In this document: positions 3,001-45,605 of the stretch, piece by piece | Numbering within the stretch: the first letter of the stretch is position 1 | Layout: the number at the start of each line of letters is the position of its first letter | Source: an uncultured Bacillota bacterium | GTDB taxonomy: Bacteria; Bacillota_I; Bacilli_A; RF39; UBA660 | Assembly: GCA_946617625.1 (NCBI GenBank) | Contig: CAMOKF010000001.1 | Coordinates: 86,064-136,057 of the forward strand | Length of the DNA stretch: 49,994 nt | Direction: 5' to 3' | Made by a program: the position numbers and the translations under genes | Notes under the pieces: model-generated | Database searches by the model: none | Told to the model about the DNA's origin: nothing | What the model saw: the letters and a program-made list of their open reading frames with translations, nothing else

Positions 3001-6000
3001 CTCTATTAAAGTTTTTAATAGAACTTATTCCTGTAAATTTTTGATTATAGAATGGAGTTCCTGAACCACCCATTCCTATCAAATCATTACATTCAAATTT
3101 CTTATCTAGACTCGTAGAAATTAAATTTTTAGGAATAATTTTAAAATCACTAGGAACTATATCATTTTGTCCCACTGCTAATGTAAATGATACTTGACCA
3201 CTTTCAATATCAGATTTATTAAATAATATAGAATTACAATTTGTATCTGACCATACTAAAACATTGTTCATAGAAGTATCATCTAATGAATCTAATTCCA
3301 TTAATAAAACGGTTATTGTATTTTCTTCTGTATCTCCAGAAATTGGAGTTAGAGGAATATCTACAACATCACCATATACACAATCAATTTTTTCAATATC
3401 AGAATCACTTATGTATCCAGGTAAAGAATTAGATACATCACTTCTGTTGTAATAGAAATAGAAACGATTTTCTGTACCATCAGTTTCGTCAGCGTGTGAT
3501 TGACCTCGATTCATATTTTTTATCTTATCTGCTTGAAGTGTATATTTATAAAGTGTAATAGGTGTTTTATTATAATTAGTATTTAATACTTTAACGTCAT
3601 AATTACATACACATCCTGTAAAAATATAATCATCATAATTACCACTATTATTTTTAACTGGTGTAGACCAAGTTTTATAGTAATTTCTTGAATTGTAAAT
3701 ATCCATATTATTGATTGGAACTAACTTAAAATTATTTTCAGTCAATAAACAATCTGTTTTATTAAAGATATATAACTCATTACTTGTAGTATTTAAAATT
3801 TTACTTCCAATGTCATCATCTAGATTATTATAATCTATGTCGCAAATTTTACTTGTTTTAGATAAATCTTCGTAGACTTCCACATTAGCTTGAGTTATAT
3901 TATAGTCATTAGTTGTAATTGAAATATCACAATTTACTTTAACTACACCCATATCAACATTATCTGTATTATAATTTGTATTAAAAGAAATATCTGATAA
4001 CTCCAATTTAATATATCTACAAGTAACATCATCAAAAGATAGTTCAGTAGAATGCATATTAGAAGTAGTAATAGTTGCAGTACTAACTTGAGTCCAAGTT
4101 TCACCATCTATAGATGTTTCTAAAACAAATGTTACACTATTAAAAAATTGTGTAACTTGGCTAGGTGGATAAATATCAATCATATTTGTAGATTTTAATA
4201 TAAATGATAAATCACCAAAATGTTCAACATCTGTTTCTTGTTGTAAATCAAATAACAAATAATAATTATCTGTATATTGATTGTTATTATAATTTAATAT
4301 TCCAAATAATATATCTAATTTTCTAGAATTATCAGAATTTACTAAATTGCTAAAAGCAGAAGTATCAACTAAACCTAAAGGTTTATTATTAAAAGCCTCA
4401 TCATATGGAGTACTTTCTGTTTTAAATGCCGTAGGTTTTTGATTATCATTTCTAAACCAAGCCTTCAATGTTATCGTTTGATTATCAGATGTTTTTCCTG
4501 TAACTTCTAAATAACCAAGATAAGATTCCATACTTGAAAGATTGATTTGAATTTGAGTATTGCTAATTTTTATACAGTTAATATCTTTAGTTGTTATTTG
4601 CATATTAGATAAAGGTCCAACTGAATCTTTAGTACCCCAAAGTAAAACACCGGGTCCATATATGTATGAATCTTTTATCCAATTAGTATCCTCACTAAAA
4701 TAAAAATATCCAAGAGGAGGTTGTCCTGGTAAACTAGTGTGTCTAATAACTTGTGACCATTTAGGACTATTTGAACTATCAGTTACTAATGTATTGAAGG
4801 CAATCTCATCTATGAAATGATTAGGCACATATGAGGCTAAAACTGAATTAATATTTTTAATATTAACACAATTTAGTTTAGCATATGTGTTAAAATCTAC
4901 TATCATATTTTCACTAGATTCAAATATAGATTCACATAGATTATTATCTTCATCATAAAATACACATTCAGGAGTGTCTGCGGTTATTAATAATTGTTCA
5001 TAAATTCTTAATTTAGTTGTAAATATTTTAGCTGATTCTGTTGTATAATTATTAATTGAGTTTGAATATCCATAAGCACTATTTCCATAGCAGTGATTAT
5101 AAAAAGCTTCAATTTTCACATCAGCAAATGTATTCTCTTTAAAAATTCCAGGAAGCATTGAACTAAATGCTGGTAAATCAAAAATAGTTTCTTCTGTAGC
5201 CTTTTCAGCATCACTTACAGAGATATTTGTACTTCCTTTAAATATCTTATTACTTACATTATATATAACTACTGTATCTGATGTATCTCCATTCAAACGA
5301 TATGTAAATTTAAGTTGTATTATATATTTATCTCCATCATTTAATGAAGAAATCCATCTACCAATATTTCTCTTAAATTTAAAGCTTAATACATTATTAT
5401 ATCCTATACACTCTTTATTATCTTTTTTAGTTAAATCTTTATATTCATTATTTACTTTATTATAAAACTCTATCTTTCCTCCAACAGAAGGACTTATATA
5501 ATGATAAAGTTTCTGCTCTCTACTATCTTTAATATTTAAATAACCTCTAGGACGTAAATCATCATCTGGCCAGTATTTAACATAATAAGGATAATAATAT
5601 GTTTCACCTATTCTACTATTAGAAGCAAACTCTGATACTTCATAACCAACTCCTGAAGTAATTAACAAATCACGATTCTTGAAATCATTTAAGTTTATAC
5701 TTCCTGGCAAGTTTCCAGTATACACAGAATATGGAGAAGTAAATCTATAATCAGAAGAATACTGTCTATATTCAGAATCTTCTAGTAACTTCATATCATC
5801 TGCGGCTAAAACTTTAAATTTATATTTATTTAAAACTTTTCTATTAAAACTTGAACCTGTAGCAGGACCTGGATAATATCCACTATAATCTGTTCCATCA
5901 TAATGAGTATAATCAATTAATAGTCTATTTGTCTCTGAACTATCATTAAAAGCAATTCTTCCTGATAGTGGATTCTTGTTTGTATTCCAAATAAAACTAC

Positions 6001-33561: not shown

Positions 33562-33922
33562 CTTGTCTTTATATAAGAACGTAACTTCTTATATGATATT
33601 ACTAGAATATCCACTTACTTTCATAAGTGAGGAGACTATTTCTTCATCCATATAATTTACTATATGGAGCCGAGCACTTCCACTATCATTAACTTATAGT
33701 GTACTAATTAGTCGTTGAACCTTATTCTATTCGAATCTTGGCTGCAGAAGAACCATTTTAATTGTACTTAGGATTTAACCATATACAAATCTATAAACTT
33801 TTTTCTACTTTCGTAACATTCACACTTAAGCTTATTTCATCTTTATGTTGTAGTGTTATAGCTTTAGGTATTGCCTGCAATTCACTCGGTATTTATAGAC
33901 TCTCTTACGAGTGTGAAACAAA
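33562..33922 (-). ncRNA. Group I intron core (intron 4), possibly missing or having an uncertain 5' splice site
   Basis: The minus strand has the conserved order of group I core elements: GAATTGCAGGCAA (P4 region), TTCTGCAGCC (Q-like), GGTTCAACGACTA (R/P7) and GAAATAGTC (S-like). It shares long identical blocks with intron 3, such as GTGAATGTTACGAAAGTAG (both followed by AAAAAAG) and GGTTAAATCCTAAG. Unlike introns 1 and 2, its endonuclease gene lies before the core rather than in the P6 loop. The 5' splice site should lie in exon 4, but I could not find a convincing P1 pairing. It may still splice (giving exon 5) or be a displaced relic. Confidence 0.6.
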
Positions 33923-34630
33923 TTACTTTATTTCTAGGGCGTTTAATCTTATCATATTTTCATCTATAAACATAAACTCATATCCTAAATCTAAACAAGC
34001 TTGTTTTTTAGCTAAAACAATTTTATCTTCTTTATCAATAGAATACTTACATTCTATAATAAGATTTTTTGATTTTATGTAAAAATCTGGTAAATACATA
34101 TGTATTTTATTATCAGTAGGTTTTAAATACGGTATTTCTAATTTTTCATATTCGTAATCAATTCCTAATTGTTCTAATAACTTAACTGTATTTAACTCTA
34201 ATGTTGACCTTAAATTTAAACCTTTATATTTATGCTTTATTCCATATCTATTTTTATAGATTTTTTCTCTAGCATCTTTATATTTTGGTAAACTATGTAG
34301 GTCATTACAAACTTTAGTCATCTGTATAGATTTCTCTTTACGTCTTTCGTCTGTCCATCCCTTTTTAGCTCTATTACTCTGAAATTTAGAATCTTGATTC
34401 ATTTCTTTACAGTGTTTAGAAGCTTTTTCTTTAGCAATATCTGATTTATTATATGTTGTAATTACCTTAGAACTAGCTTCTTTACGTAATTTAGCACTTT
34501 CATCAGAATATGTTTTGCTATTAGGGTATAAACATCTAAATTCTTTATAAGTTAAATTATGTGTTTTTAAATGCACATTATTTATACAGTTTAATTTTTT
34601 ATTACAAATAGGACATTTTATCTTACTCAT
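33923..34630 (-). CDS. Homing endonuclease, zinc finger plus PD-(D/E)XK
   Basis: This 235-residue protein starts with a Cys2His2-like finger (Cys6, Cys9, His20, His24; CPICNKKL ... HLKTHNLTYKEF) similar to the MucR/Ros-type finger used by many phage endonucleases to bind DNA. The C-terminal half has the PD-(D/E)XK layout: RSTLELNTVKLLEQ (Glu145), YLPDF (Asp182), IIECK (Glu193, Lys195) and a final QACLDLGYEFMFI. It starts four bases after the TAA of exon 4 and lies upstream of the intron 4 core. It would cut an intron-less or element-less capsid gene and promote copying of the element. The catalytic residues look intact. Confidence 0.78.
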   Translation of the reverse strand: MSKIKCPICNKKLNCINNVHLKTHNLTYKEFRCLYPNSKTYSDESAKLRKEASSKVITTYNKSDIAKEKASKHCKEMNQDSKFQSNRAKKGWTDERRKEKSIQMTKVCNDLHSLPKYKDAREKIYKNRYGIKHKYKGLNLRSTLELNTVKLLEQLGIDYEYEKLEIPYLKPTDNKIHMYLPDFYIKSKNLIIECKYSIDKEDKIVLAKKQACLDLGYEFMFIDENMIRLNALEIK

Positions 34631-34633
34631 AAA

Positions 34634-35194
34634 TTATGAAATTACCTTACCTCTTATATACATTTTATTATTTACAAGTTTTTTAGCATAAGACGTTGCC
34701 CAGCCTTTTCTTCCTGCGAAGTCATCTGTCATCAACAAATCTGTACTAATGATTGGCATATATGGACAATAGAACATACCAGCATCCATAAATGAACTTC
34801 CTTTGTAACCCATTACATATTCATCTGGGTCATATTCAGGTGATACATAAACTTTGATATTACCAAGAGTACCCATAAAGTAAGGTCCAATTGCCTGTTG
34901 TCCTGAAGGTGAGAAGTTTCTCATTACTTCAATAACAGATGCAACATTAAGACCACAAACCATAAAGTTAGGTTTAATCTTTCTTGTACTCTGATATACA
35001 AGGTTCAAACCTTCAACGATTCTAGCATAGAAGCTATCGTAATGGTCTACTAGGTTAACACCAGTAATCTGTGTCTTTGACCAAGGTGTGTTCTCTGTAG
35101 CTGCCTTATCTCTAATATCTTTTGCTAACTCAATATCAATTTCGTGAGCAATTTCACCAGATACTTCAGTAGCTAGAAGAGAATCAATATCTTG
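34634..35194 (-). CDS. Major capsid protein exon 4 with in-frame stop
   Basis: Exon 4 begins after intron 3 with QDIDSLLATEVSGEIAHEID and continues to YIRGKVIS and TAA at 34634. It contains the typical gp23-like C-terminal half: VDHYDSFYARIVEGLN, MVCGLNVASVIEVM, QQAIGPYFMGTLGN, VYVSPEYDPDEYVMGYKGSS and YCPYMPII. It is complete without further splicing. The last 22 codons duplicate the downstream exon 5 with diverged nucleotides and higher A+T content, so they may have been imported along with the endonuclease gene that follows four bases later. Confidence 0.82.
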   Translation of the reverse strand, partial: QDIDSLLATEVSGEIAHEIDIELAKDIRDKAATENTPWSKTQITGVNLVDHYDSFYARIVEGLNLVYQSTRKIKPNFMVCGLNVASVIEVMRNFSPSGQQAIGPYFMGTLGNIKVYVSPEYDPDEYVMGYKGSSFMDAGMFYCPYMPIISTDLLMTDDFAGRKGWATSYAKKLVNNKMYIRGKVIS

Positions 35195-38135
35195 CCCATC
35201 ATTTTAATGATGTTGCTAATATTTTCATATTAGATTAGACTATATCTTCATCTACGAGAGATGTTTCCCATTTCGAAGTATTATGTAATACCCCTACGTC
35301 ATAATGACTAGTCGTTGAACTTTCTCCATTTAAATTAAGGAGCTTAGCTGCTGATTATCGATTACTATATATCCTTAGGATTTAACCTTAGATTATTGTC
35401 TTATCTTTTTTCTACTTTCGTAACATTCACGCTTATCTTTTCAGATTACGTTGTAGTGTAAGACACTTTACGATTTTCCAGCAATTAGAGAAATTTATTT
35501 TTGTACCTGTCACCAGATACCGGAGCTGGTCAAGATTTATGCAACCTTAGTTAACTCCTTCTCAAGCTCGTAAGCTGCGTCAAAAGCATAAACAGCTTTC
35601 ATCTTTCTGCTCTGTGCTTGTACTGGTAGTGAAGTAATCTTCAAGTTTACTTCTGGAACATTGTTAATTGGAACATCTTCATTGTTATATGTATATGAAG
35701 CTGTAACATCCTGTGTAGGAGCATTAGTTAAAGTGATTGCAAGTGTACCAGTTGCATAATCAATAGTACCAGTAACACCTGTACCTGTAATGTTTCCAGC
35801 ACCATCATCAGTAATAATTGTACCATCTACATTAACTCCAAATGTACCAGGAATAATTGGTGTCCAACTTGCTGTAGCTGAAATAGATGTTGTTCCTGCT
35901 GCCGCAATCATCTCACCATCAATAGCTGATGTTGAGTAATTAGGGTCAGCAACACCCATATTCAAGCTTGATGCAAACATATCACCAGCTTTAGTTTTAC
36001 CCTTATTGCTACCATAATCATATTGAATATAATTAATCATACCAACCAAGTGTGTTACATATAAACCGTTTCCGTTTATATTCTATATGTCACCATATAG
36101 TTCAGACTATATCACGTTCTTAATTACTATTACCATAATTAAGAACCCTAGCTTTTCGAGTTCACTTGAACCCTACTCTACTCCCTTCTTCTTATAGAGA
36201 TTTCTTCTATAATATGGTTTCGATAGTCGTTGCACTACTTAATATTTTATGTAAATCTTCAATAGAAAATAAAAAATAAAATTCATATCCTGCTTTTTCA
36301 CAAGCTTTTTTCTTAATTTGATTTACTTCATCTTCCCAATAACAATATGGTTTAATTTCTAAAATAATATCATCTTGTAATAAAATATCTGGTAAATAAC
36401 TATGTATTACATTATTATAATTATAATTAATTGTAATACACTCATAATCAAAATTTGAGGTATATTTAGAAAGTTCACTTATAATGTTTGCCTCAACTTG
36501 ACTTCGAGTAGTTATGTTTCTACCATTCGGTAATGTTAAATTAACTCTATTTCCAATTTTTCCATATCTAGCAAGTGAATTAGTATATTCTGGATTTTCG
36601 TGTCTTTTTAACATCATTTCACGAACAACTTTTTTATGTTTTTCTGATTTATTGTATTCAGTTATCTTCTTACTAATTTTATCTAGTTGCTCTAACCTTT
36701 TAGCACAAGTGCTATTATTCCAGTTTTTCCAATTATTTTTAGCGGCATTTAATTTTTTATTTGATGGATTATGATTAGCATAATCAACTTTAGCCCTAAA
36801 TGTAGGGTCATTATTATTGTTAATCATAATTCTTTGACGTTGTTCTAATTGTTTACCGCTAATATTAGGAATATCAGGATATTTATTATGAAATTCATCC
36901 CAAGATAATTTATGTGTTTTGCCTAAATGTGACTTCATTCTTTGAACTTTTTTATCACATATAGGACATTCAATGTATTCATAATACTTATCTTTTCTAA
37001 CTTCTTTCATATAAACATCCTTTATTAAATAGCTCAGGATTGTCTTAATTTATTAAGAGTTCCCCTGAATTAACTAGGTTATTCGAGTTAGATTACTCTA
37101 ACAAGTCGCTATGGATTTTAAACGATTATCGATTGGTTGTACCGAACAAATATCATAAGCAATCAAGTTAGGTACAACAGCATTTACAATATCAAGAGCC
37201 GTTTACGTTGCGAATAAATCGTTTCCATTTATTCTCTATATATTTCTATATAGACCTGACTATATCATATTCCTTATTTATAATATAAGGAATCCTTGCA
37301 CTTCCATTTAAAGGATTTACATTAAGTTAATGTCACTTAATTACCTACCACTTGGCTGTACTCTACTCATTTACTCCTCGATTTCTTTTATCGAGTACAC
37401 TTTCGATAGTCGATGAACTTATTATACTTTTCTTATGAAGTTTTCCAAAATACCATCCAATATAATTATAAAGTTCAAATACTTTGGGGTGTTTACTTAT
37501 ATGTCCGTTAGTAATCCAAATTCTATTTTTGGCGGCATTTTTAATTTTCTTTACCATATTTTTTAAATGCTTTTTTAATAAGTTTACCAGAACCTTTATA
37601 TCTTTCATCAAATTTAGATGACTTATGTTGTCCTACATATTTCTTTTTATTAATAAGGTTTGTTGTTAAATAAATATATCCATACATAAATAAATTTCTC
37701 CTATAAATTTATATATATTAAATAGTGGTAATCCTAAAAATAGGAGTTTTAGGAAATGAGAGCTACTCACTGTCCCACTAATTAATTTTAATAATTAATT
37801 AGTATAATAAGCTGCTGATTGTCCATTGTTACATCCTTAAAATTTTCACACTTTGGTATTTAAGGCTTTAGGAGTTTCCAGCAATTCACAAGGTTTGTCA
37901 TAACATATTACTATGCTACGGATACTCCACAAGAATATCTCTTATATTGACCGATGCCAGCAGGCTGTGTTGATTCTGTCATCTTAATTCTATGATGAGT
38001 ATTCTCTAGACATACTGCCAAAGCAACGGCTTTTTCTGTTCCTAGTTTTTTACCTAGAACAGATTCAGTCATTTTAATTCTCTTATCCCACTTTCTTAGT
38101 AGGCGAGCATTTTTAGCACTAATTTTATCTGCCAT
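34634..38135 (-). CDS. Major capsid protein, gp23-like, interrupted by group I introns (joined exons)
   Basis: The capsid reading is join of 38135-37932 (68 codons), 37199-37122 (26), 36064-35543 (174) and 35194-34637 (186), giving about 454 residues, or a similar length if exon 5 is used. The spliced protein reads through IGQYKRYS|ALDIVNAVVPNL, ICSVQPIDNR|LYVTHLVG and KELTKV|QDIDSLLA, which is continuous gp23-like sequence. Residues around 115-225 form an inserted beta domain. Exon 1 is a likely propeptide with two copies of RIKMTES spaced 30 residues apart, compatible with prohead protease cleavage. It assembles the head shell. The gene follows the protease-scaffold gene, as in T4. Splice positions for introns 1 and 3 are supported by P1 or P10 pairing; intron 2 is ambiguous by a few bases. 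Confidence 0.85.
35195..35542 (-). ncRNA. Group I intron 3 in capsid gene (no ORF)
   Basis: This 348-base intron carries all core elements on the minus strand: AATTGCTGGAAAA (P4), AATCAGCAGC (Q), GTTCAACGACTAGTC (R) and AAGATATAGTC (S). The 5' exon ends GGTT, and GACC just inside the intron forms P1 with U-G at the splice site. AUCUU next to it pairs with AAGAU at the start of exon 4 (P10), which fixes the junction as V|QDID. It has no endonuclease gene. It is related to intron 4. Confidence 0.85.
35543..36064 (-). CDS. Major capsid protein exon 3
   Basis: 174 codons, from LYVTHLVGMINYIQYDYGSN to ELEKELTKV. Near the start MINYIQYDYGSNKGKTKAGD is gp23-like. The middle (about 45-125) is a Thr/Gly/Ala-rich beta insertion, ASWTPIIPGTFGVNVDGT to ASYTYNNEDVP, as found in capsid insertion domains. 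The end, VPEVNLKITSLPVQAQSRKM, then KAVYAFDAAYELEKEL, is the conserved hinge before the long C-terminal part. Unspliced reading would end at TAA two codons into intron 3. Confidence 0.85.
36065..37121 (-). ncRNA. Group I intron 2 in capsid gene
   Basis: The 1057-base intron has AATTCAGGGGAA (P4), CAATCCTGAGC (Q) before the endonuclease gene, and GTGCAACGACTATCG (R) and GTGATATAGTC (S) after it. The gene therefore lies in the P6 loop. The exon boundary is ambiguous because TTTA occurs at both junctions; all options give DNR|LYV. The endonuclease C-terminus (ATTIETIL) overlaps the R element. Confidence 0.82.
36207..37010 (-). CDS. Intron 2 homing endonuclease, zinc finger plus PD-(D/E)XK
   Basis: This 267-residue protein has a finger at its start (Cys15, Cys18, His28, His33; ECPICDKKVQRMKSHLGKTH) followed by LSWDEFHNKYP. 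The C-terminal half has TTRSQVEANIISEL (Glu173), SYLPDIL (Asp208), ILEIKPY (Glu218, Lys220) and KKACEKAGYEFYFLF, a PD-(D/E)XK nuclease layout like that of the intron 4 endonuclease. The middle is basic and probably wraps DNA. Start MKEVRKDKYY follows AAAGGATG. The gene appears intact, so intron 2 is probably still mobile. Its last codons are read from the intron's catalytic core. Confidence 0.8.
   Translation of the reverse strand: MKEVRKDKYYEYIECPICDKKVQRMKSHLGKTHKLSWDEFHNKYPDIPNISGKQLEQRQRIMINNNNDPTFRAKVDYANHNPSNKKLNAAKNNWKNWNNSTCAKRLEQLDKISKKITEYNKSEKHKKVVREMMLKRHENPEYTNSLARYGKIGNRVNLTLPNGRNITTRSQVEANIISELSKYTSNFDYECITINYNYNNVIHSYLPDILLQDDIILEIKPYCYWEDEVNQIKKKACEKAGYEFYFLFSIEDLHKILSSATTIETIL
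37122..37199 (-). CDS. Major capsid protein exon 2 (26 codons)
   Basis: This mini-exon encodes ALDIVNAVVPNLIAYDICSV and then QPIDNR, a nearly invariant stretch of gp23-like capsid proteins. It is flanked by intron 1 (3' end AAACG|GCTCTT) and intron 2. It can only be expressed by splicing, because neither flank is open. A homing element on each side of a 78-base conserved core shows that this short region is a repeated target. Confidence 0.85.
37200..37931 (-). ncRNA. Group I intron 1 in capsid gene
   Basis: This 732-base intron begins after GATATTCT. P1 pairs GAUAUUCU of exon 1 with GGAGUAUC inside the intron, all eight positions, with the U-G at the splice site. The core elements are AATTGCTGGAAAC (P4), CAATCAGCAGC (Q), GTTCATCGACTATCG (R) and ATGATATAGTC (S). 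A decayed endonuclease gene lies between Q and R, in the P6 loop. The joined exons give YKRYS|ALDIV. Confidence 0.85.
37363..37687 (-). pseudogene. Decayed GIY-YIG homing endonuclease in intron 1
   Basis: The first part, ATG at 37687 to TAA at 37541, encodes 48 residues starting MYGYIYLTTNLINKKKYVGQ and ending KKAFKKYGKEN. This is the start of a GIY-YIG domain. The second part, in another frame and read to TAG at 37363, has KNRIWITNGHISKHPKVFEL and IGWYFGKLHKK, a NUMOD-like DNA-binding module. The catalytic Arg/Glu segments between them are missing. The gene is broken by an internal deletion and a frame change, so it is very likely inactive. Confidence 0.75.
37932..38135 (-). CDS. Major capsid protein exon 1 with propeptide
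   Basis: 68 codons, MADKISAKNARLLRKWDKRI to IGQYKRYS. RIKMTES occurs at residues 19-25 and 49-55, with a helical LGTEKAVALAVCLENT between. Prohead proteases of the gp21 type cleave after (I/L)-x-E-like motifs, so one of these may be the maturation site; the second would leave STQPAGIGQYKRYS as the mature start. The start has AAAGGAG six bases before ATG. Without splicing the frame stops six codons into intron 1. Confidence 0.85.
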
Positions 38136-40989: not shown

Positions 40990-42102
40990 TTAATATTCAT
41001 CATCGTATTCATCTTCATCCCAGTAATCATCATATTCATCTTCTTCTGGTGAATCGTCAAATTCAAAAGGACCATTTTCTGAATACACACTACCTTTTTT
41101 AGGTTCTTGTTCAAGTTCTTTTAATTTTTCTTCTGTAAAACAAGTATCACAAAGTTTCTTTAATAATTGTTCATATTCATCTTGTGTATAAATAGTTTTA
41201 ATTTCATCTAAAATTGATTTTGATTCTGGAATATATTTATATAACCAATTTGCATAAGATGATAGGTCATTTGCCCAACCATCTAAACCATATGTATTGT
41301 CAAAAACATCTCCATCATTATACCATTTATAAATAAGTTTAGATGTTGCTGTTGCTAGTTGAGTTGCCATATTATCACCTTCTCCTGAAGCTGGTAAATA
41401 TTTATCATCTAACTTCTCAAACTTATTGAAATAAGACCAATCAACTCCACCTTTATCTTCTCCACCATTATAACCATTTTCTTCAGGTTCAGAAGCTTTA
41501 TTTTCACTCTCTGATGAATTTTCTACATCCTTATTATTACATCTATCAATCATATCCATACTAACTGCTAAAAGATGATTATAATCAGAAGATTTAGCAT
41601 CATCTAAATAACTATTGATTTCTTCTTGTGAAAATCCTTGTTCTTTCATAGCTTTTTGAACATAACCCATAATTGAGTATGCATTACCATCAATACCTAC
41701 AAGGTCGTATTCTTTTGCTTCTTTGATAGATTCTGTTAACCTTGTATCTATATAAGCTATAGATATTCCAGGTTCTTCCATTTCAAAATAAGCGTCTTTA
41801 TCATATTTTTGAATAACGGGATTTAAATATTCATTAATTACTTTTTCAAATTCTTCATAATACATTTCCGATGAAAAAGTAACTCTTGTTCTTTTACCAT
41901 CATCTTTTACAGAAACATCTGCTAAATAAACATATTGGAGTTCTGATTCTAAATCAAAATCTTCAACACCCTTATTTATATCTATTACGTATTGTTTAAA
42001 AGCATCTTCTAACTCTTTTTGTAAAACTGATTTAGATTTAGTAGATTCTTTAATCTGTTGAGTTCTATCAATTATGTTTTCTATTAAGTTTTTAGTATTC
42101 AT
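40990..42102 (-). CDS. Unknown acidic protein downstream of portal
   Basis: This 370-residue protein begins MNTKNLIENIIDRTQQIKES, possibly a head-targeting or cleavable start with QIKES. Residues 130-200 contain a helical region with GNAYSIMGYVQKAMKEQGFS and EEINSYLDDAKSSDYNHLLA. Residues about 230-330 form another domain. The C-terminus is a highly acidic tail (PEEDEYDDYWDEDEYDDEY). Its start overlaps the portal stop by one base, so translation is probably coupled. I cannot name the function; an internal prohead protein is possible. Confidence 0.6.
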   Translation of the reverse strand: MNTKNLIENIIDRTQQIKESTKSKSVLQKELEDAFKQYVIDINKGVEDFDLESELQYVYLADVSVKDDGKRTRVTFSSEMYYEEFEKVINEYLNPVIQKYDKDAYFEMEEPGISIAYIDTRLTESIKEAKEYDLVGIDGNAYSIMGYVQKAMKEQGFSQEEINSYLDDAKSSDYNHLLAVSMDMIDRCNNKDVENSSESENKASEPEENGYNGGEDKGGVDWSYFNKFEKLDDKYLPASGEGDNMATQLATATSKLIYKWYNDGDVFDNTYGLDGWANDLSSYANWLYKYIPESKSILDEIKTIYTQDEYEQLLKKLCDTCFTEEKLKELEQEPKKGSVYSENGPFEFDDSPEEDEYDDYWDEDEYDDEY

Positions 42103-43949
42103 TAAAACTCTCCTTCATCTTCAAATGAACCGAATTCAACAGTCTCTTCAACTCCAGTATCTTCAAAACCTGTATTTTCTCCACCAAAATCTTCTGGTGG
42201 TCCACTAGGTTCTCCTCCACCTCTGAAGTCTCCTAACATATCTCCACCCATATCACTTGACATTGAATGACCTGATGATGTACCGAAACCATCTTCTTCC
42301 ATAGCTTCATCAGCAAACTCATCTTCTTCTTGAGTTCCTTTGTCTTCTTCTAAGATATCTGATAGTTCATTGTCTGATAGATAAATGTTTACAAAGTATT
42401 CAAATACTTTCTTCTTAGTTTCATCTGTATAACTATCTCCAAGTAATTCTATAAATGAACTAATTAGGTCTAATCTTATTCCCATAGTTTCATCTCTTTC
42501 AGCATCTTCTGTAGTTGCTGGTGAAACCATACGAACTTTGAACTTATTTACATATCCATCAAAACCTTTATCTAATGCAAATAGATTTAATAAATCTGTT
42601 ATACCTTGAACATAAGCATTTTGTATTCTCTTTATTGTTCTAGCATATCTTGCATCTAGTTTAGTTAAAGATGTACCACCACTAAATCCTGCGGCATCAT
42701 CCGTAAATCCTAAAAATTGTTTTGGAACTTTAAGTCCACCAAACAATTTATTTGAATAATAATCTAAATCTGCAATAGATTTAATATCTACATCTCCACC
42801 CACATTACTCATTGAAATAGTACCTTTACCATTTCTTGTAGGTATATAAAGTATGTTATCAATAGGACCAGGAGCTGCTTGACTCTTAAATCTTCCTACA
42901 TCTTTATCTAACATATTTCTCTGTTCCATCATTTGCTTTAATCTCTTTAGCAAATTAGAAACTTGAGATTTTGTCATATCTCCTACTTCTACTTGAAGTA
43001 ATCTAATAATTGAAGAACGAGTAATTCTATTTAGAAGAATAGCATCTTCCATTAATTTAACTTCTTGATATATTTTGTATATATCATAAAGAATAGATTT
43101 ACCACGTTTAATTTTATATTCTTCTACAACCTCTTTAGTTTCGTGAGTTTTCTTATCCTCGCCTGTAAATACAATAGCTAACTTCTCTGGAAATCTAGTT
43201 ACTGTATTTGAAAGTGTTATATGAATATAGTTTCTAGGGTCACAAACAGTTTTATTTAAACTATTCTCTGCCTGATATGTATATGTATTCATAAGACCTT
43301 GTGTTTTAAAATCTGATTGGTCTTCAACTGGAATCTTTACAAAACCAACTGTCTTATCTTTTTTAACTAAATCAAATATCTCACAAGGATTATTTACCAT
43401 TTCAATAGATTCTTCCATTACTGAACCTTTTCTAGGTTTCTTAATGTTTGTGAATCCATCATTATATCCTCTGTCATTTTCAATTTCTTGAGTTAAATCT
43501 GTAAATGTTTCTAGATATAAATCACCATATAAACAAAGAGCATATATGTGTTCCCAACAATTTTTGTTTAAATCTAAAATATCTACAAGTCTATTACCAA
43601 ATTGAGCAATTTCTGTATCATCACTATCTACCCAAATAATTTTTCCGTCTCTGTTATATTGAGTAGCATCATCTGCATACATTTCTAATGCTGAGGCAAT
43701 AATACTATCTAACTTCATTTCATCATAGACTTTGTATAATTGTTCTCTAGTATCAGATACAATTCTTAGTTTATCTAAATCTGAAGCATCTACAAATACA
43801 TCTGTATCTGCTGCTTTCAATAATTCATCACCAAGAGTTTTTCCCTGAGACGCAATATGAACTCCTGTATTATTATCAGGAGCTTTTACTCTAATTCCAA
43901 GAACATCTTCTGTAAATATTTTCCATCTACTTTTATTGTTTGTTGGCAT
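42102..43949 (-). CDS. Portal protein, gp20-like
   Basis: This 615-residue protein has the portal layout: a start with SRWKIFTEDVLGI, then LDSIIASALEMYADDATQYN near residue 80 (a common portal phrase), a wing region with YHI-like NYIHITLSN, a long stem helix region with LMEDAILLNRITRSSIIRLL, and a conserved KVPKQFLGF followed by GGTSLTKLDARYARTIKRIQ. The last 90 residues are acidic and Gly-rich. It forms the dodecameric DNA gate and docks terminase. It follows the terminase gene as in most phages; in T4, gp20 has 524 residues. Confidence 0.88.
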   Translation of the reverse strand: MPTNNKSRWKIFTEDVLGIRVKAPDNNTGVHIASQGKTLGDELLKAADTDVFVDASDLDKLRIVSDTREQLYKVYDEMKLDSIIASALEMYADDATQYNRDGKIIWVDSDDTEIAQFGNRLVDILDLNKNCWEHIYALCLYGDLYLETFTDLTQEIENDRGYNDGFTNIKKPRKGSVMEESIEMVNNPCEIFDLVKKDKTVGFVKIPVEDQSDFKTQGLMNTYTYQAENSLNKTVCDPRNYIHITLSNTVTRFPEKLAIVFTGEDKKTHETKEVVEEYKIKRGKSILYDIYKIYQEVKLMEDAILLNRITRSSIIRLLQVEVGDMTKSQVSNLLKRLKQMMEQRNMLDKDVGRFKSQAAPGPIDNILYIPTRNGKGTISMSNVGGDVDIKSIADLDYYSNKLFGGLKVPKQFLGFTDDAAGFSGGTSLTKLDARYARTIKRIQNAYVQGITDLLNLFALDKGFDGYVNKFKVRMVSPATTEDAERDETMGIRLDLISSFIELLGDSYTDETKKKVFEYFVNIYLSDNELSDILEEDKGTQEEDEFADEAMEEDGFGTSSGHSMSSDMGGDMLGDFRGGGEPSGPPEDFGGENTGFEDTGVEETVEFGSFEDEGEF

Positions 43950-43960
43950 ATACCCTCTTT

Positions 43961-45568
43961 TTAAAAAATTAACATACTATCATCTTGATGTGAGAAAAAT
44001 GCATTTTCTAATTCATCATCAGTAACTGTAGCATTTTCTTGTCTTGTCATTGTACTTCTTAATTGTTTCAATCTTTTATCTTGTTCCTCTTTTATCTCTT
44101 GTTCGTGTTGCATATTATCTAACTCTGTACTCATCAAATCTGCTACACTTTGTTCTTCTTGTTTAGGAACACTAGTAATATCTGATTTTAATTGAGCTAA
44201 ATACTTATCTTCTGGTGTAATATAAACATCTTCATTTGTATCTACAATAGCTGTATAATCTTCAATTACATTTAAATCTAATGGGTCAACATTTAATGAA
44301 GCATTATATAAAGCACCAGCTAAACTATCGGCACCATCCTTTTCTCCTTCAGGAGGGTGATCAACTTTTCCTGTCTGATTATTTTGTTCAAGATTTATTA
44401 ACTGATTATAAATCTCTTCTGTATTATTTAATAATCTAATTCTTCTTTCATTTATTGAAGCCTTTAGATACATATAACCATCAGGTTTTTTATCTAAAGA
44501 TATTATAGATGCATTAAATCCAGCTTGTATAAACTGTTGTTTACTATCTGCTGATTGGAATCCATCTAATGAAACTCCCTGAATATTTAATCCAAGTCTA
44601 TGTCTTAACCAATAAATAAATTTTCTATTTTTCTCAAGACTTATCTCATCTCCAGTAGGACATTGTATTTCAACAGTAAAAGCGTGTTTATATACAAATT
44701 CGTGTACTGGAGCATATTCACCATCTTGATATTGTTGCTCTTCTCGTAAACCAATTACCCATACACCTGATATACCAGTTTTATCACCCGTTAATGATGT
44801 ATCAATATGAATAAACATAGGCTTACTGATAAGTGCACTATCTAATTTTATAGTACTAAAAAAGTCCTGTATCAGCATACTATCAGATGTACCTATACTG
44901 ATAACATTGTTTGTAAATGGGTTCTCTGAACTACATTTTGCACTGTCTATACTATCATAAGATATAAACTTAGTAACTAATGAAGTAGATATACCAGCAA
45001 ATTCCATTAATGACCTATCTACATCTCTTTCAAAGTCTTTCTTTAACTCTAATGGTACTGCTAATAATCTATATCCTTGTTGTTTTATAGCATCTAAATC
45101 TTCTCCAGGTCTTACTATTCTTGAATTTAATTTCTTATCTCCTACTGCAACATAGAATCTTTTATCTGAAAATGTACCTTTAGGTTTTACATTCCATTGA
45201 GGTTCATCTGATATAAATACATCTTTTTCATCTTTTACTGTTTCTATATATGATTCTACGAAATCTTGTTCTGATTTCTTTGATGATACTAGAAATAATT
45301 TTGCTTGTAATACACCACCAAATGTAAATCTTGATTGCATTCTTCGTTTTACACTTGTATATGTATCCATTATTTTAGATTTAGTATAATCTATATTACT
45401 ACCCTTAACAAAATTAATCTAAATTTCGTCAAGAATTCCACAATTATGAGATACAACATATCTATTATTGGTCTTTATTAAAAAGTTATTATTTGGTGTA
45501 GCCAATACAACATCATATACTGGAATTGGCTCATCGTATTTAACTTTTATAATACTAGAAATCTTCAC
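43961..45568 (-). CDS. Large terminase C-terminal half with split-intein IntC and internal UAG
   Basis: GTG at 45568 follows a strong AGGGGAGGTGA site and opens one continuous frame to 43961, apart from one UAG at 45421-45419. Codons 1-42 are an intein C-terminal fragment. Codons 43-49 are CGILDEI, which looks like the Walker B motif of large terminases. After UAG the frame continues INFVKGSNIDYTKSK, then YTSVKRRMQSRF and FLVSSKKSEQDFVESYI (the ATPase coupling motif). The RNase H-like nuclease follows, with Asp in FIHIDTS, VSLDGF and KDGADSLAGAL (residues 190, 269 and 348 counted from the Met at 45370). The Met at 45370 has no ribosome binding site and would lose Walker B, so it is not a good start. 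The N-terminal half with Walker A must lie elsewhere. Function: ATP-driven DNA packaging and cutting. Confidence 0.8.
45416..45424 (-). promoter_or_regulatory. In-frame UAG flanked by identical AUU codons (recoding candidate)
   Basis: The mRNA reads GAA AUU UAG AUU AAU UUU. Removing one AUU and the UAG gives LDEINF, the expected terminase sequence (related terminases have LDEMNF). This arrangement, a take-off codon followed by UAG and a matching landing codon, is that of the T4 gene 60 bypass, but with only six bases skipped. Plain read-through would add two residues instead (LDEI-x-INF). Reinitiation at a rare ATA codon after AAGGG, ten codons on, is a third possibility. It is also compatible with a true nonsense mutation or sequence error. 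Confidence 0.45.
45443..45568 (-). other. C-terminal split-intein fragment (IntC)
   Basis: The 42 codons encode KISSIIKVKYDEPI at the start, then VYDVVLATPNNNFLI (intein block F) and RYVVSHN followed by Cys (block G: penultimate His, terminal Asn, and Cys as the first extein residue). The length is in the range of known IntC fragments, and the start codon with its own strong ribosome binding site shows that it is a separate polypeptide. No N-terminal intein fragment or Walker A half is present elsewhere in the window. Function: splice in trans with an IntN-bearing terminase N-half. Confidence 0.85.
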
Positions 45569-45605
45569 GAAATATCACCTCCCCTCAAAATACTAAAATT
45601 ATTAC

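What the first reader, a model, noticed from the sequence alone, without database searches (positions are those of the whole stretch)
43961..45568. Terminase large subunit split by a split intein at the Walker B motif
The frame begins with its own GTG and strong ribosome binding site, then a canonical IntC (VYDVVLATPNNNFLI ... VVSHN|C), followed by CGILDEI and the rest of the terminase, including the nuclease domain. Directly seen: the IntC motifs and the downstream terminase motifs. Known: split inteins occur in phage replication and nucleotide-metabolism genes (gp41 helicase, NrdA, NrdJ, IMPDH). Inference: terminase is assembled by protein trans-splicing, with the Walker A half encoded outside the window.
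Basis: partly seen in the sequence, partly recalled or inferred. Interest (0 to 1): 0.92.

Follow-up and report, generated by a model that had tools for sequence, protein, structure and literature searches.

The report
Split terminase with a ribosome stop-hop

Summary
The missing N-half (Walker A, then an intein N-fragment starting at Cys) lies about 102 kb away on the same 136-kb contig, and no second copy of this terminase was found. The same split occurs in isolated phages (Bacillus SP-15, Listeria LIS04, Streptococcus GXN1). TAG is a normal stop in this phage, and this is the only such interruption found when the contig was compared with a relative. Six alleles of the intein-bearing family have a stop immediately 3' of a codon at this spot, with gaps of +1 (CUU UGA C, the RF2 frameshift motif), +6 (AUU UAG AUU, the window), +9, +10, +25 and +39 nt. 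None of 50 intein-less terminases does. In two sister alleles the take-off and landing codons match and differ together (CUC/CUC, CUG/CUG), and the gap changes length and frame. I conclude that the C-half is probably made by stop-associated ribosomal hopping/bypassing and then joined to the N-half by protein trans-splicing. This recalls T4 gene 60. Nothing has been tested at the bench.

The parts
45570..45585 (-). ribosome binding site of the IntC/C-half gene (GGGGAGGTGATATTTC before GTG)
   Evidence: read directly
45440..45568 (-). IntC: GTG start, 43 codons VKISSII...VYDVVLATPNNNFLI...VVSHN|C (Cys+1 at 45442-45440)
   Evidence: alignment with IntC of four other phages, invariant VYD, NF, HNC
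45422..45439 (-). start of the C-extein after Cys+1: GILDEI (Walker B Asp and catalytic Glu); take-off codon ATT 45424-45422, codon 49 of the ORF
45416..45421 (-). 6-nt coding gap: stop TAG (45421-45419) and landing codon ATT (45418-45416) matching the take-off codon; exact hexaloop of a predicted 15-bp hairpin
45401..45436 (-). predicted hairpin, 15-bp stem with loop UAGAUU; as stable or more in 1.7% of synonymous recodings at a narrow window, 14% at a wider one
43961..45415 (-). rest of the terminase C-half: NFVKGSNIDYTKSKI-MDTYT..., rest of ATPase domain and RNase H-like nuclease domain
42102..43949 (-). portal protein (T4 gp20 family) directly downstream: genomic context of a packaging gene
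   Evidence: Pfam PF07230 E 6.4e-52

Best explanation
This is the C-terminal half of a phage large terminase whose gene is fractured at the Walker B strand. Step 1 (inferred): ribosomes translate IntC plus CGILDEI and meet TAG in the A site. The peptidyl-tRNA-Ile leaves AUU, hops six nucleotides and re-pairs with the identical AUU beyond the stop, then decodes AAU. The product is IntC-CGILDEI-NFVKGS..., collinear with unbroken terminases. Step 2 (inferred from complete intein motifs): IntC associates with the IntN on the N-half made from the gene at C1:27111-28025, and protein trans-splicing joins ...GLGQDII to CGILDEINF..., restoring the ATPase. Step 3 (more speculative): such gaps arise and persist because a short insertion in the conserved Walker B sequence spoils the target of homing endonucleases that attack this site, while ribosomes skip it at tolerable cost, as proposed for T4 gene 60.
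For: Split: N-half with IntN on the same contig, no second C-half; same split in SP-15, LIS04 and GXN1 with IntC fused in frame. Recoding: in 78 non-identical terminase loci, 6 of 28 with an intein at this site and 0 of 50 without have a stop/gap after the junction (Fisher p 0.0015, phylogeny not corrected). Alleles: window ATT TAG ATT; L008/L009 TGC TAA CTA TGA; L010 TGC TAG ATC A TGA; L067/L125 CTC TGA-33 nt-CTC; L126 CTG TAA-19 nt-CTG; L132 CTT TGA C. The stop is always directly 3' of the last collinear codon. L067 and L126 (87% aa identity) differ in both take-off and landing codon and stay matched; the gap differs in length and frame, so readthrough cannot explain both. After the gap the sequence evolves as coding: 11 of 18 differences at third positions between landing and first ATG in L067/L126, 9 of 16 in window/L008, 5 of 5 in L132/L131. 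No ATG, GTG or TTG lies between resume codon and conserved Met in window, L067 or L126. tblastn of L010's contig against the window's contig showed no other in-frame stop inside a real coding match. Take-off codons are 44-49, close to codon 46 of T4 gene 60.
Against: No expression, ribosome-profiling or mass-spectrometric data. The window's own gap rests on one allele with possibly non-independent assemblies. In L008 and L010 the proposed landing codon is TGA against take-off TGC, a two-of-three match. Hairpins are weakly supported in window and L008 and not in L010, L067 or L126. No nascent-peptide signal was tested. A matched codon could also come from target-site duplication when the gap was inserted. 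Most relatives with an intein at this site (22 of 28) need no recoding.
Confidence: 0.68

Rival explanations
1. UAG readthrough: a near-cognate tRNA reads TAG, giving CGILDEI-X-I-NFVKGS with two extra residues after Walker B.
For: In the window the frame is the same on both sides of TAG, so readthrough alone would give a full-length product.
Against: It cannot serve L010 (+10), L126 (+25) or L132 (+1), where the frame changes, nor easily L008 with two stops. It would put two extra residues beside the catalytic Glu, where relatives have no insertion. No suppressor tRNA found.
Confidence: 0.12
2. Two-chain terminase: translation stops at TAG; the short IntC-CGILDEI only trims IntN from the N-half by trans-splicing, and the C-half starts separately, so the motor works as a nicked enzyme.
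For: L008 and L010 have a TTG, and L132 a GTG, a few codons after the gap. Together the pieces still contain the whole terminase sequence in those alleles.
Against: Window, L067 and L126 have no ATG, GTG or TTG before the conserved Met 15-18 codons on; starting there would drop residues that are conserved with third-position bias, and in L067/L126 also the Walker B DE. Codons between TGA and TTG in L008/L010 still encode the family residues GI/AL.
Confidence: 0.1
3. Assembly or sequencing error, or a dead gene.
For: The exact 6-nt allele is seen only in the window and in an identical contig that may share reads.
Against: The other alleles include pairs from different metagenomes (L008/L009 99.93% identical; L067/L125). 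All put a stop directly after the last collinear codon at the same junction, and the downstream half is under purifying selection. The genome has no second C-half.
Confidence: 0.07
4. The gap is removed at the RNA level, as a tiny intron or by editing.
For: These phages carry group I introns in capsid and terminase genes.
Against: Gaps of 1-39 nt are far too short for self-splicing introns, no Rfam match lies at the junction, and an always-adjacent stop with matched flanking codons has no role in RNA removal.
Confidence: 0.03

Closest known systems
Split terminase large subunit of Bacillus phage SP-15, Listeria phage LIS04 and Streptococcus phage vB_SagM-GXN1
   Same: Same protein, same intein site before Walker B, split intein, N-half and C-half in separate genes (61 kb apart in GXN1).
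   Different: IntC is fused in frame to the C-half with no stop or gap.
Phage T4 gene 39 / mobA / gene 60 (translational bypass of 50 nt)
   Same: Gene split beside a homing endonuclease; [quoted passage not shown] take-off at codon 46 (here 44-49) (PMC5009743, PMC3014915, PMC11194080). GIY-YIG genes lie between the halves in L125, L126 and L132 and next to IntC in L008.
   Different: Here the pieces are rejoined by an intein rather than as subunits; gaps are 1-39 nt; the window's allele is a 6-nt stop-hop with no adjacent endonuclease; bypass not shown experimentally.
Stop-hops on synthetic constructs (matched codons flanking a stop)
   Same: AUU UAG AUU is exactly this arrangement, nine nucleotides giving one amino acid (PMC5009743).
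   Different: The 2016 review states that no natural occurrences were known.
RF2 (prfB) +1 frameshift site CUU UGA C
   Same: The L132 allele carries CUU UGA C at the same junction; the prfB motif itself is quoted from general knowledge.
   Different: In a phage terminase, not prfB; no clear upstream Shine-Dalgarno stimulator seen.
Fractured genes with split inteins (Dassa et al. 2009) and the split-intein DNA polymerase of phage MIJ3
   Same: Gene broken within an intein with an endonuclease between halves (MIJ3: PMC6892783; Dassa et al. from memory, text not held).
   Different: Host gene is terminase and the C-half needs recoding.
Streptomyces phage Hau3 terminase (suspected bypass)
   Same: Also a terminase, bypass suspected (PMC5009743).
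   Different: Centred on a UUA codon; no split intein mentioned in the passages read.

Membership tests
Split intein | IntN with catalytic Cys1 at the end of the N-extein gene | tested here: met
   intein_Nterm (TIGR01445) above cut-off, starting at C211 of the N-half; matches DnaE and NrdJ-1 inteins by sequence profile
Split intein | IntC with own start, blocks F and G (HN) and nucleophile +1 | tested here: met
Split intein | IntN and IntC splice in trans | not testable with these tools
   needs co-expression
Terminase large subunit | Walker A in the N-half | tested here: met
   GAIGLGKTT in L012; aligns with N-halves of relatives
Terminase large subunit | Walker B with catalytic Glu | tested here: met
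   GILDE, collinear with intact relatives
Terminase large subunit | RNase H-like nuclease domain | tested here: met
   C-half model Z 15-16 to terminase nuclease domains
Translational bypass (T4 gene 60 type) | stop codon directly 3' of take-off codon | tested here: met
   six of six alleles
Translational bypass (T4 gene 60 type) | take-off codon matches landing codon | tested here: met
   exact in window, L067 and L126; two of three bases in L008 and L010
Translational bypass (T4 gene 60 type) | take-off stem-loop | tested here: inconclusive
   window fraction 0.017 and L008 0.026 at the narrow window, both about 0.13 at the wider one; not significant in L010, L067, L126
Translational bypass (T4 gene 60 type) | nascent-peptide stimulator | not tested
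   only the ORF1 length was compared
Translational bypass (T4 gene 60 type) | measured fusion product from two ORFs | not testable with these tools
   needs mass spectrometry or reporters
Homing-endonuclease plus bypass cassette | homing endonuclease gene next to the bypassed gene | tested here: inconclusive
   GIY-YIG in L008, L125, L126 by Pfam and GIY-YIG-like by eye, apparently broken, in L132; none seen beside IntC in the window or L010

The most novel reading that the evidence does not exclude
Stop-associated ribosomal hopping/bypassing has arisen repeatedly at one site, the C-extein start of split-intein terminases, as the price of escaping homing endonucleases that cut the conserved Walker B sequence. 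An essential motor enzyme would then need both a ribosome jump and protein trans-splicing, and the window would hold a natural 6-nt stop-hop, a class not known in nature as of the 2016 review.
Probability: 0.45. Interest if true: 0.93.

Novelty: new variant of a known kind. Interest (0 to 1): 0.85.

Why it matters
Programmed bypassing is established in very few natural places (T4 gene 60, yeast mitochondria). Here is a candidate set of natural alleles at one site, with gaps from 1 to 39 nt and with take-off and landing codons that differ together, so the determinants of hopping can be compared and tested. It also links two oddities, split inteins and bypass, possibly through homing-endonuclease pressure on one essential gene, and shows that terminase annotation can fail where several kinds of interruption coincide.

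Tried and rejected
Stop-codon reassignment: rejected for the window (TAG ends 7 of 40 ORFs; no suppressor tRNA) and for L008 (TAA and TGA both in frame). Some distant relatives appear to read TGA as Trp, but not this phage.

Group I intron at the junction: no Rfam match there.

Genome-contig scans for relatives: nothing confirmed, twice.

AlphaFold model of the N-half: poor (pLDDT 40.6, four sequences), not used. The C-half model is adequate mainly for the nuclease domain.

PDB search by C-half profile: no hit. PHROGs, Pfam and NCBIfam do not recognise the window's C-half by sequence.

Dassa et al. 2009 is not held. One short peptide search of the genome was uninformative.

Full report
Observation. 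On the minus strand a GTG at 45568 follows GGGGAGGTGATATTTC and opens an IntC of 43 codons (VKISSIIKVKYDEPIPVYDVVLATPNNNFLIKTNNRYVVSHN|C), followed by GILDEI. TAG is an ordinary stop here: of 40 non-overlapping ORFs of at least 80 aa, 31 end in TAA, 7 in TAG and 2 in TGA. ARAGORN finds only Glu, Asn, Gln and Met tRNAs on the contig.

The other half. The window is C1:86064-136057 of a 1.19-Mb, 64-contig bin, and it ends at the contig's end. The intein_Nterm family rings at C1:27192-27395. There a 304-aa ORF carries Walker A (GAIGLGKTT), runs to GSQAEHGLGQDII and continues as CVKGDTVIK...EVTGEHKLKLKDGTYKKAKDLTEEDELLDIDIIQ. The intein model starts at that Cys and passes its curated cut-off, and a four-sequence profile also matches DnaE and NrdJ-1 inteins in the PDB. 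The C-half has one copy in the bin. Another terminase on C7 is an ordinary 485-aa Terminase_6N protein with its own neighbouring phage-like ORFs.

Relatives. Isolated phages have the same split terminase: SP-15 (N-half ...GLGRDIF|CLTGESK...; C-half ...VVHN|CGLLDEVEF), LIS04 and GXN1, the last with halves about 61 kb apart. Intein-less relatives read straight through, for example GIGQHIFAGMLDEVNF and GQQIYCAFMDEVDF, so the intein sits at the start of the Walker B strand.

The interruption is not unique to the window. Six alleles have a stop directly after the last collinear codon, then a gap, then the family sequence. Window: ATT|TAG ATT|AAT. L008/L009: TGC|TAA CTA TGA|GGA. L010: TGC|TAG ATC A TGA|GCT. 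L067/L125: CTC|TGA, 33 nt, CTC|GAT. L126: CTG|TAA, 19 nt, CTG|GAT. L132: CTT|TGA C, which in +1 reads GAC GAG. L132's intein-less sisters L131, L133 and L134 lack the extra base. L008 and L009 come from two metagenomes and are 99.93% identical over 4.2 kb; L067 and L125 also come from two metagenomes. L007 matches the window at 100% over 12 kb and may not be independent.

Strength. Among 78 non-identical terminase loci, 6 of 28 with an intein at this site and 0 of 50 without show such a gap (Fisher p 0.0015; relatedness not corrected). Comparing the L010 contig with the window's contig by tblastn, the only in-frame stop inside a genuine coding match is this one; the others are antisense frames or lie at or beyond gene ends. 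Between landing codon and first ATG the L067/L126 differences fall 3/4/11 by codon position, and window/L008 3/4/9, so that stretch looks translated in the downstream frame. Window, L067 and L126 have no ATG, GTG or TTG there. L067 and L126 differ in both the take-off and the landing codon, which remain matched (CTC/CTC, CTG/CTG), while the gap is 39 nt in one and 25 nt in the other, so one is in frame and one is not. Codon frequencies of the three exact matches are 4.0%, 0.9% and 1.0%, though L067 and L126 are not independent and a target-site duplication could have produced a match at origin. In the window the gap UAGAUU is the exact loop of a 15-bp predicted hairpin; 1.7% of synonymous recodings are as stable at a narrow window, 13.6% at a wider one. 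L008 gives 2.6% and 13.3%, and the other alleles nothing. RNA structure is therefore only suggestive.

Mechanism. The simplest single account is stop-associated recoding: peptidyl-tRNA leaves the codon before the stop and re-pairs at a matched or near-matched codon downstream (or slips +1 at CUU UGA C in L132), and the resulting IntC-terminase joins the N-half by trans-splicing. Both steps are inferred; neither is shown. Readthrough fails for alleles that change frame. Separate initiation fails for alleles without a start codon and would lose conserved residues.

Known things it resembles. T4 gene 60 has a gene split by a homing endonuclease, a stop directly 3' of the take-off codon, matched GGA codons, take-off at codon 46 and a 50-nt gap proposed to protect against the nuclease (PMC5009743, PMC3014915, PMC11194080). 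Here take-off is at codons 44-49, and GIY-YIG genes lie between the halves in L125 and L126, apparently in broken form in L132, and beside IntC in L008. None was seen beside IntC in the window or L010, so the endonuclease-escape story is not established. The 2016 review says stop-hops were seen with synthetic constructs and that no natural in-frame occurrence was known, and it mentions a suspected bypass in the Streptomyces phage Hau3 terminase (PMC5009743). My searches of an open-licence paper library found no report of a split-intein terminase or of bypass beside an intein; that library is incomplete.

Verdict. The split-intein terminase is well supported and is a new member of a known kind, already present in cultured phages. 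The recoding step at the junction is the surprising part: strongly suggested by comparison, unproven experimentally.

Noticed in passing
window 33612-37010 (minus): The major capsid protein gene is broken by group I introns (Rfam matches at 35216-35526 and 33612-33939) and by ORFs 33923-34630 and 36207-37010 with Phage_endo_I-like nuclease domains.
   Followed up: partly
L055 1-3400 (start of the L010 contig): The terminase N-half of this relative is further interrupted by a cis intein with an HNH-like insert just before Walker A and at least one group I intron, as well as carrying the IntN at Walker B.
   Followed up: partly
L016 about 5000-5600 and L126 3001-4626: A second intein in the terminase nuclease domain (after HPPNS in GXN1; HPANG|C...VVHN|S in L126).
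   Followed up: no
L125 1341-1943: A second IntC fused in frame to a divergent, truncated terminase C-half fragment, beside the gapped one: possible recombination relic.
   Followed up: no
L014 1589-3712: Listeria phage LIS04: the terminase N-half is interrupted by an endonuclease ORF just before the IntN, so the record annotates the pieces as separate small intein/Hint proteins.
   Followed up: partly
L080, L096, L097, L099, L107: Relatives with in-frame TGA or other stops at conserved Trp-like positions, suggesting phages or hosts that read TGA as Trp.
   Followed up: no
L013 (G000 contig C17): A long surface-like protein with a C-terminal Hint-like domain (weak intein_Nterm match).
   Followed up: no
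L132 2384-3270: The GIY-YIG-like endonuclease between the two terminase halves appears broken into two ORFs, as if decaying after the split.
   Followed up: no
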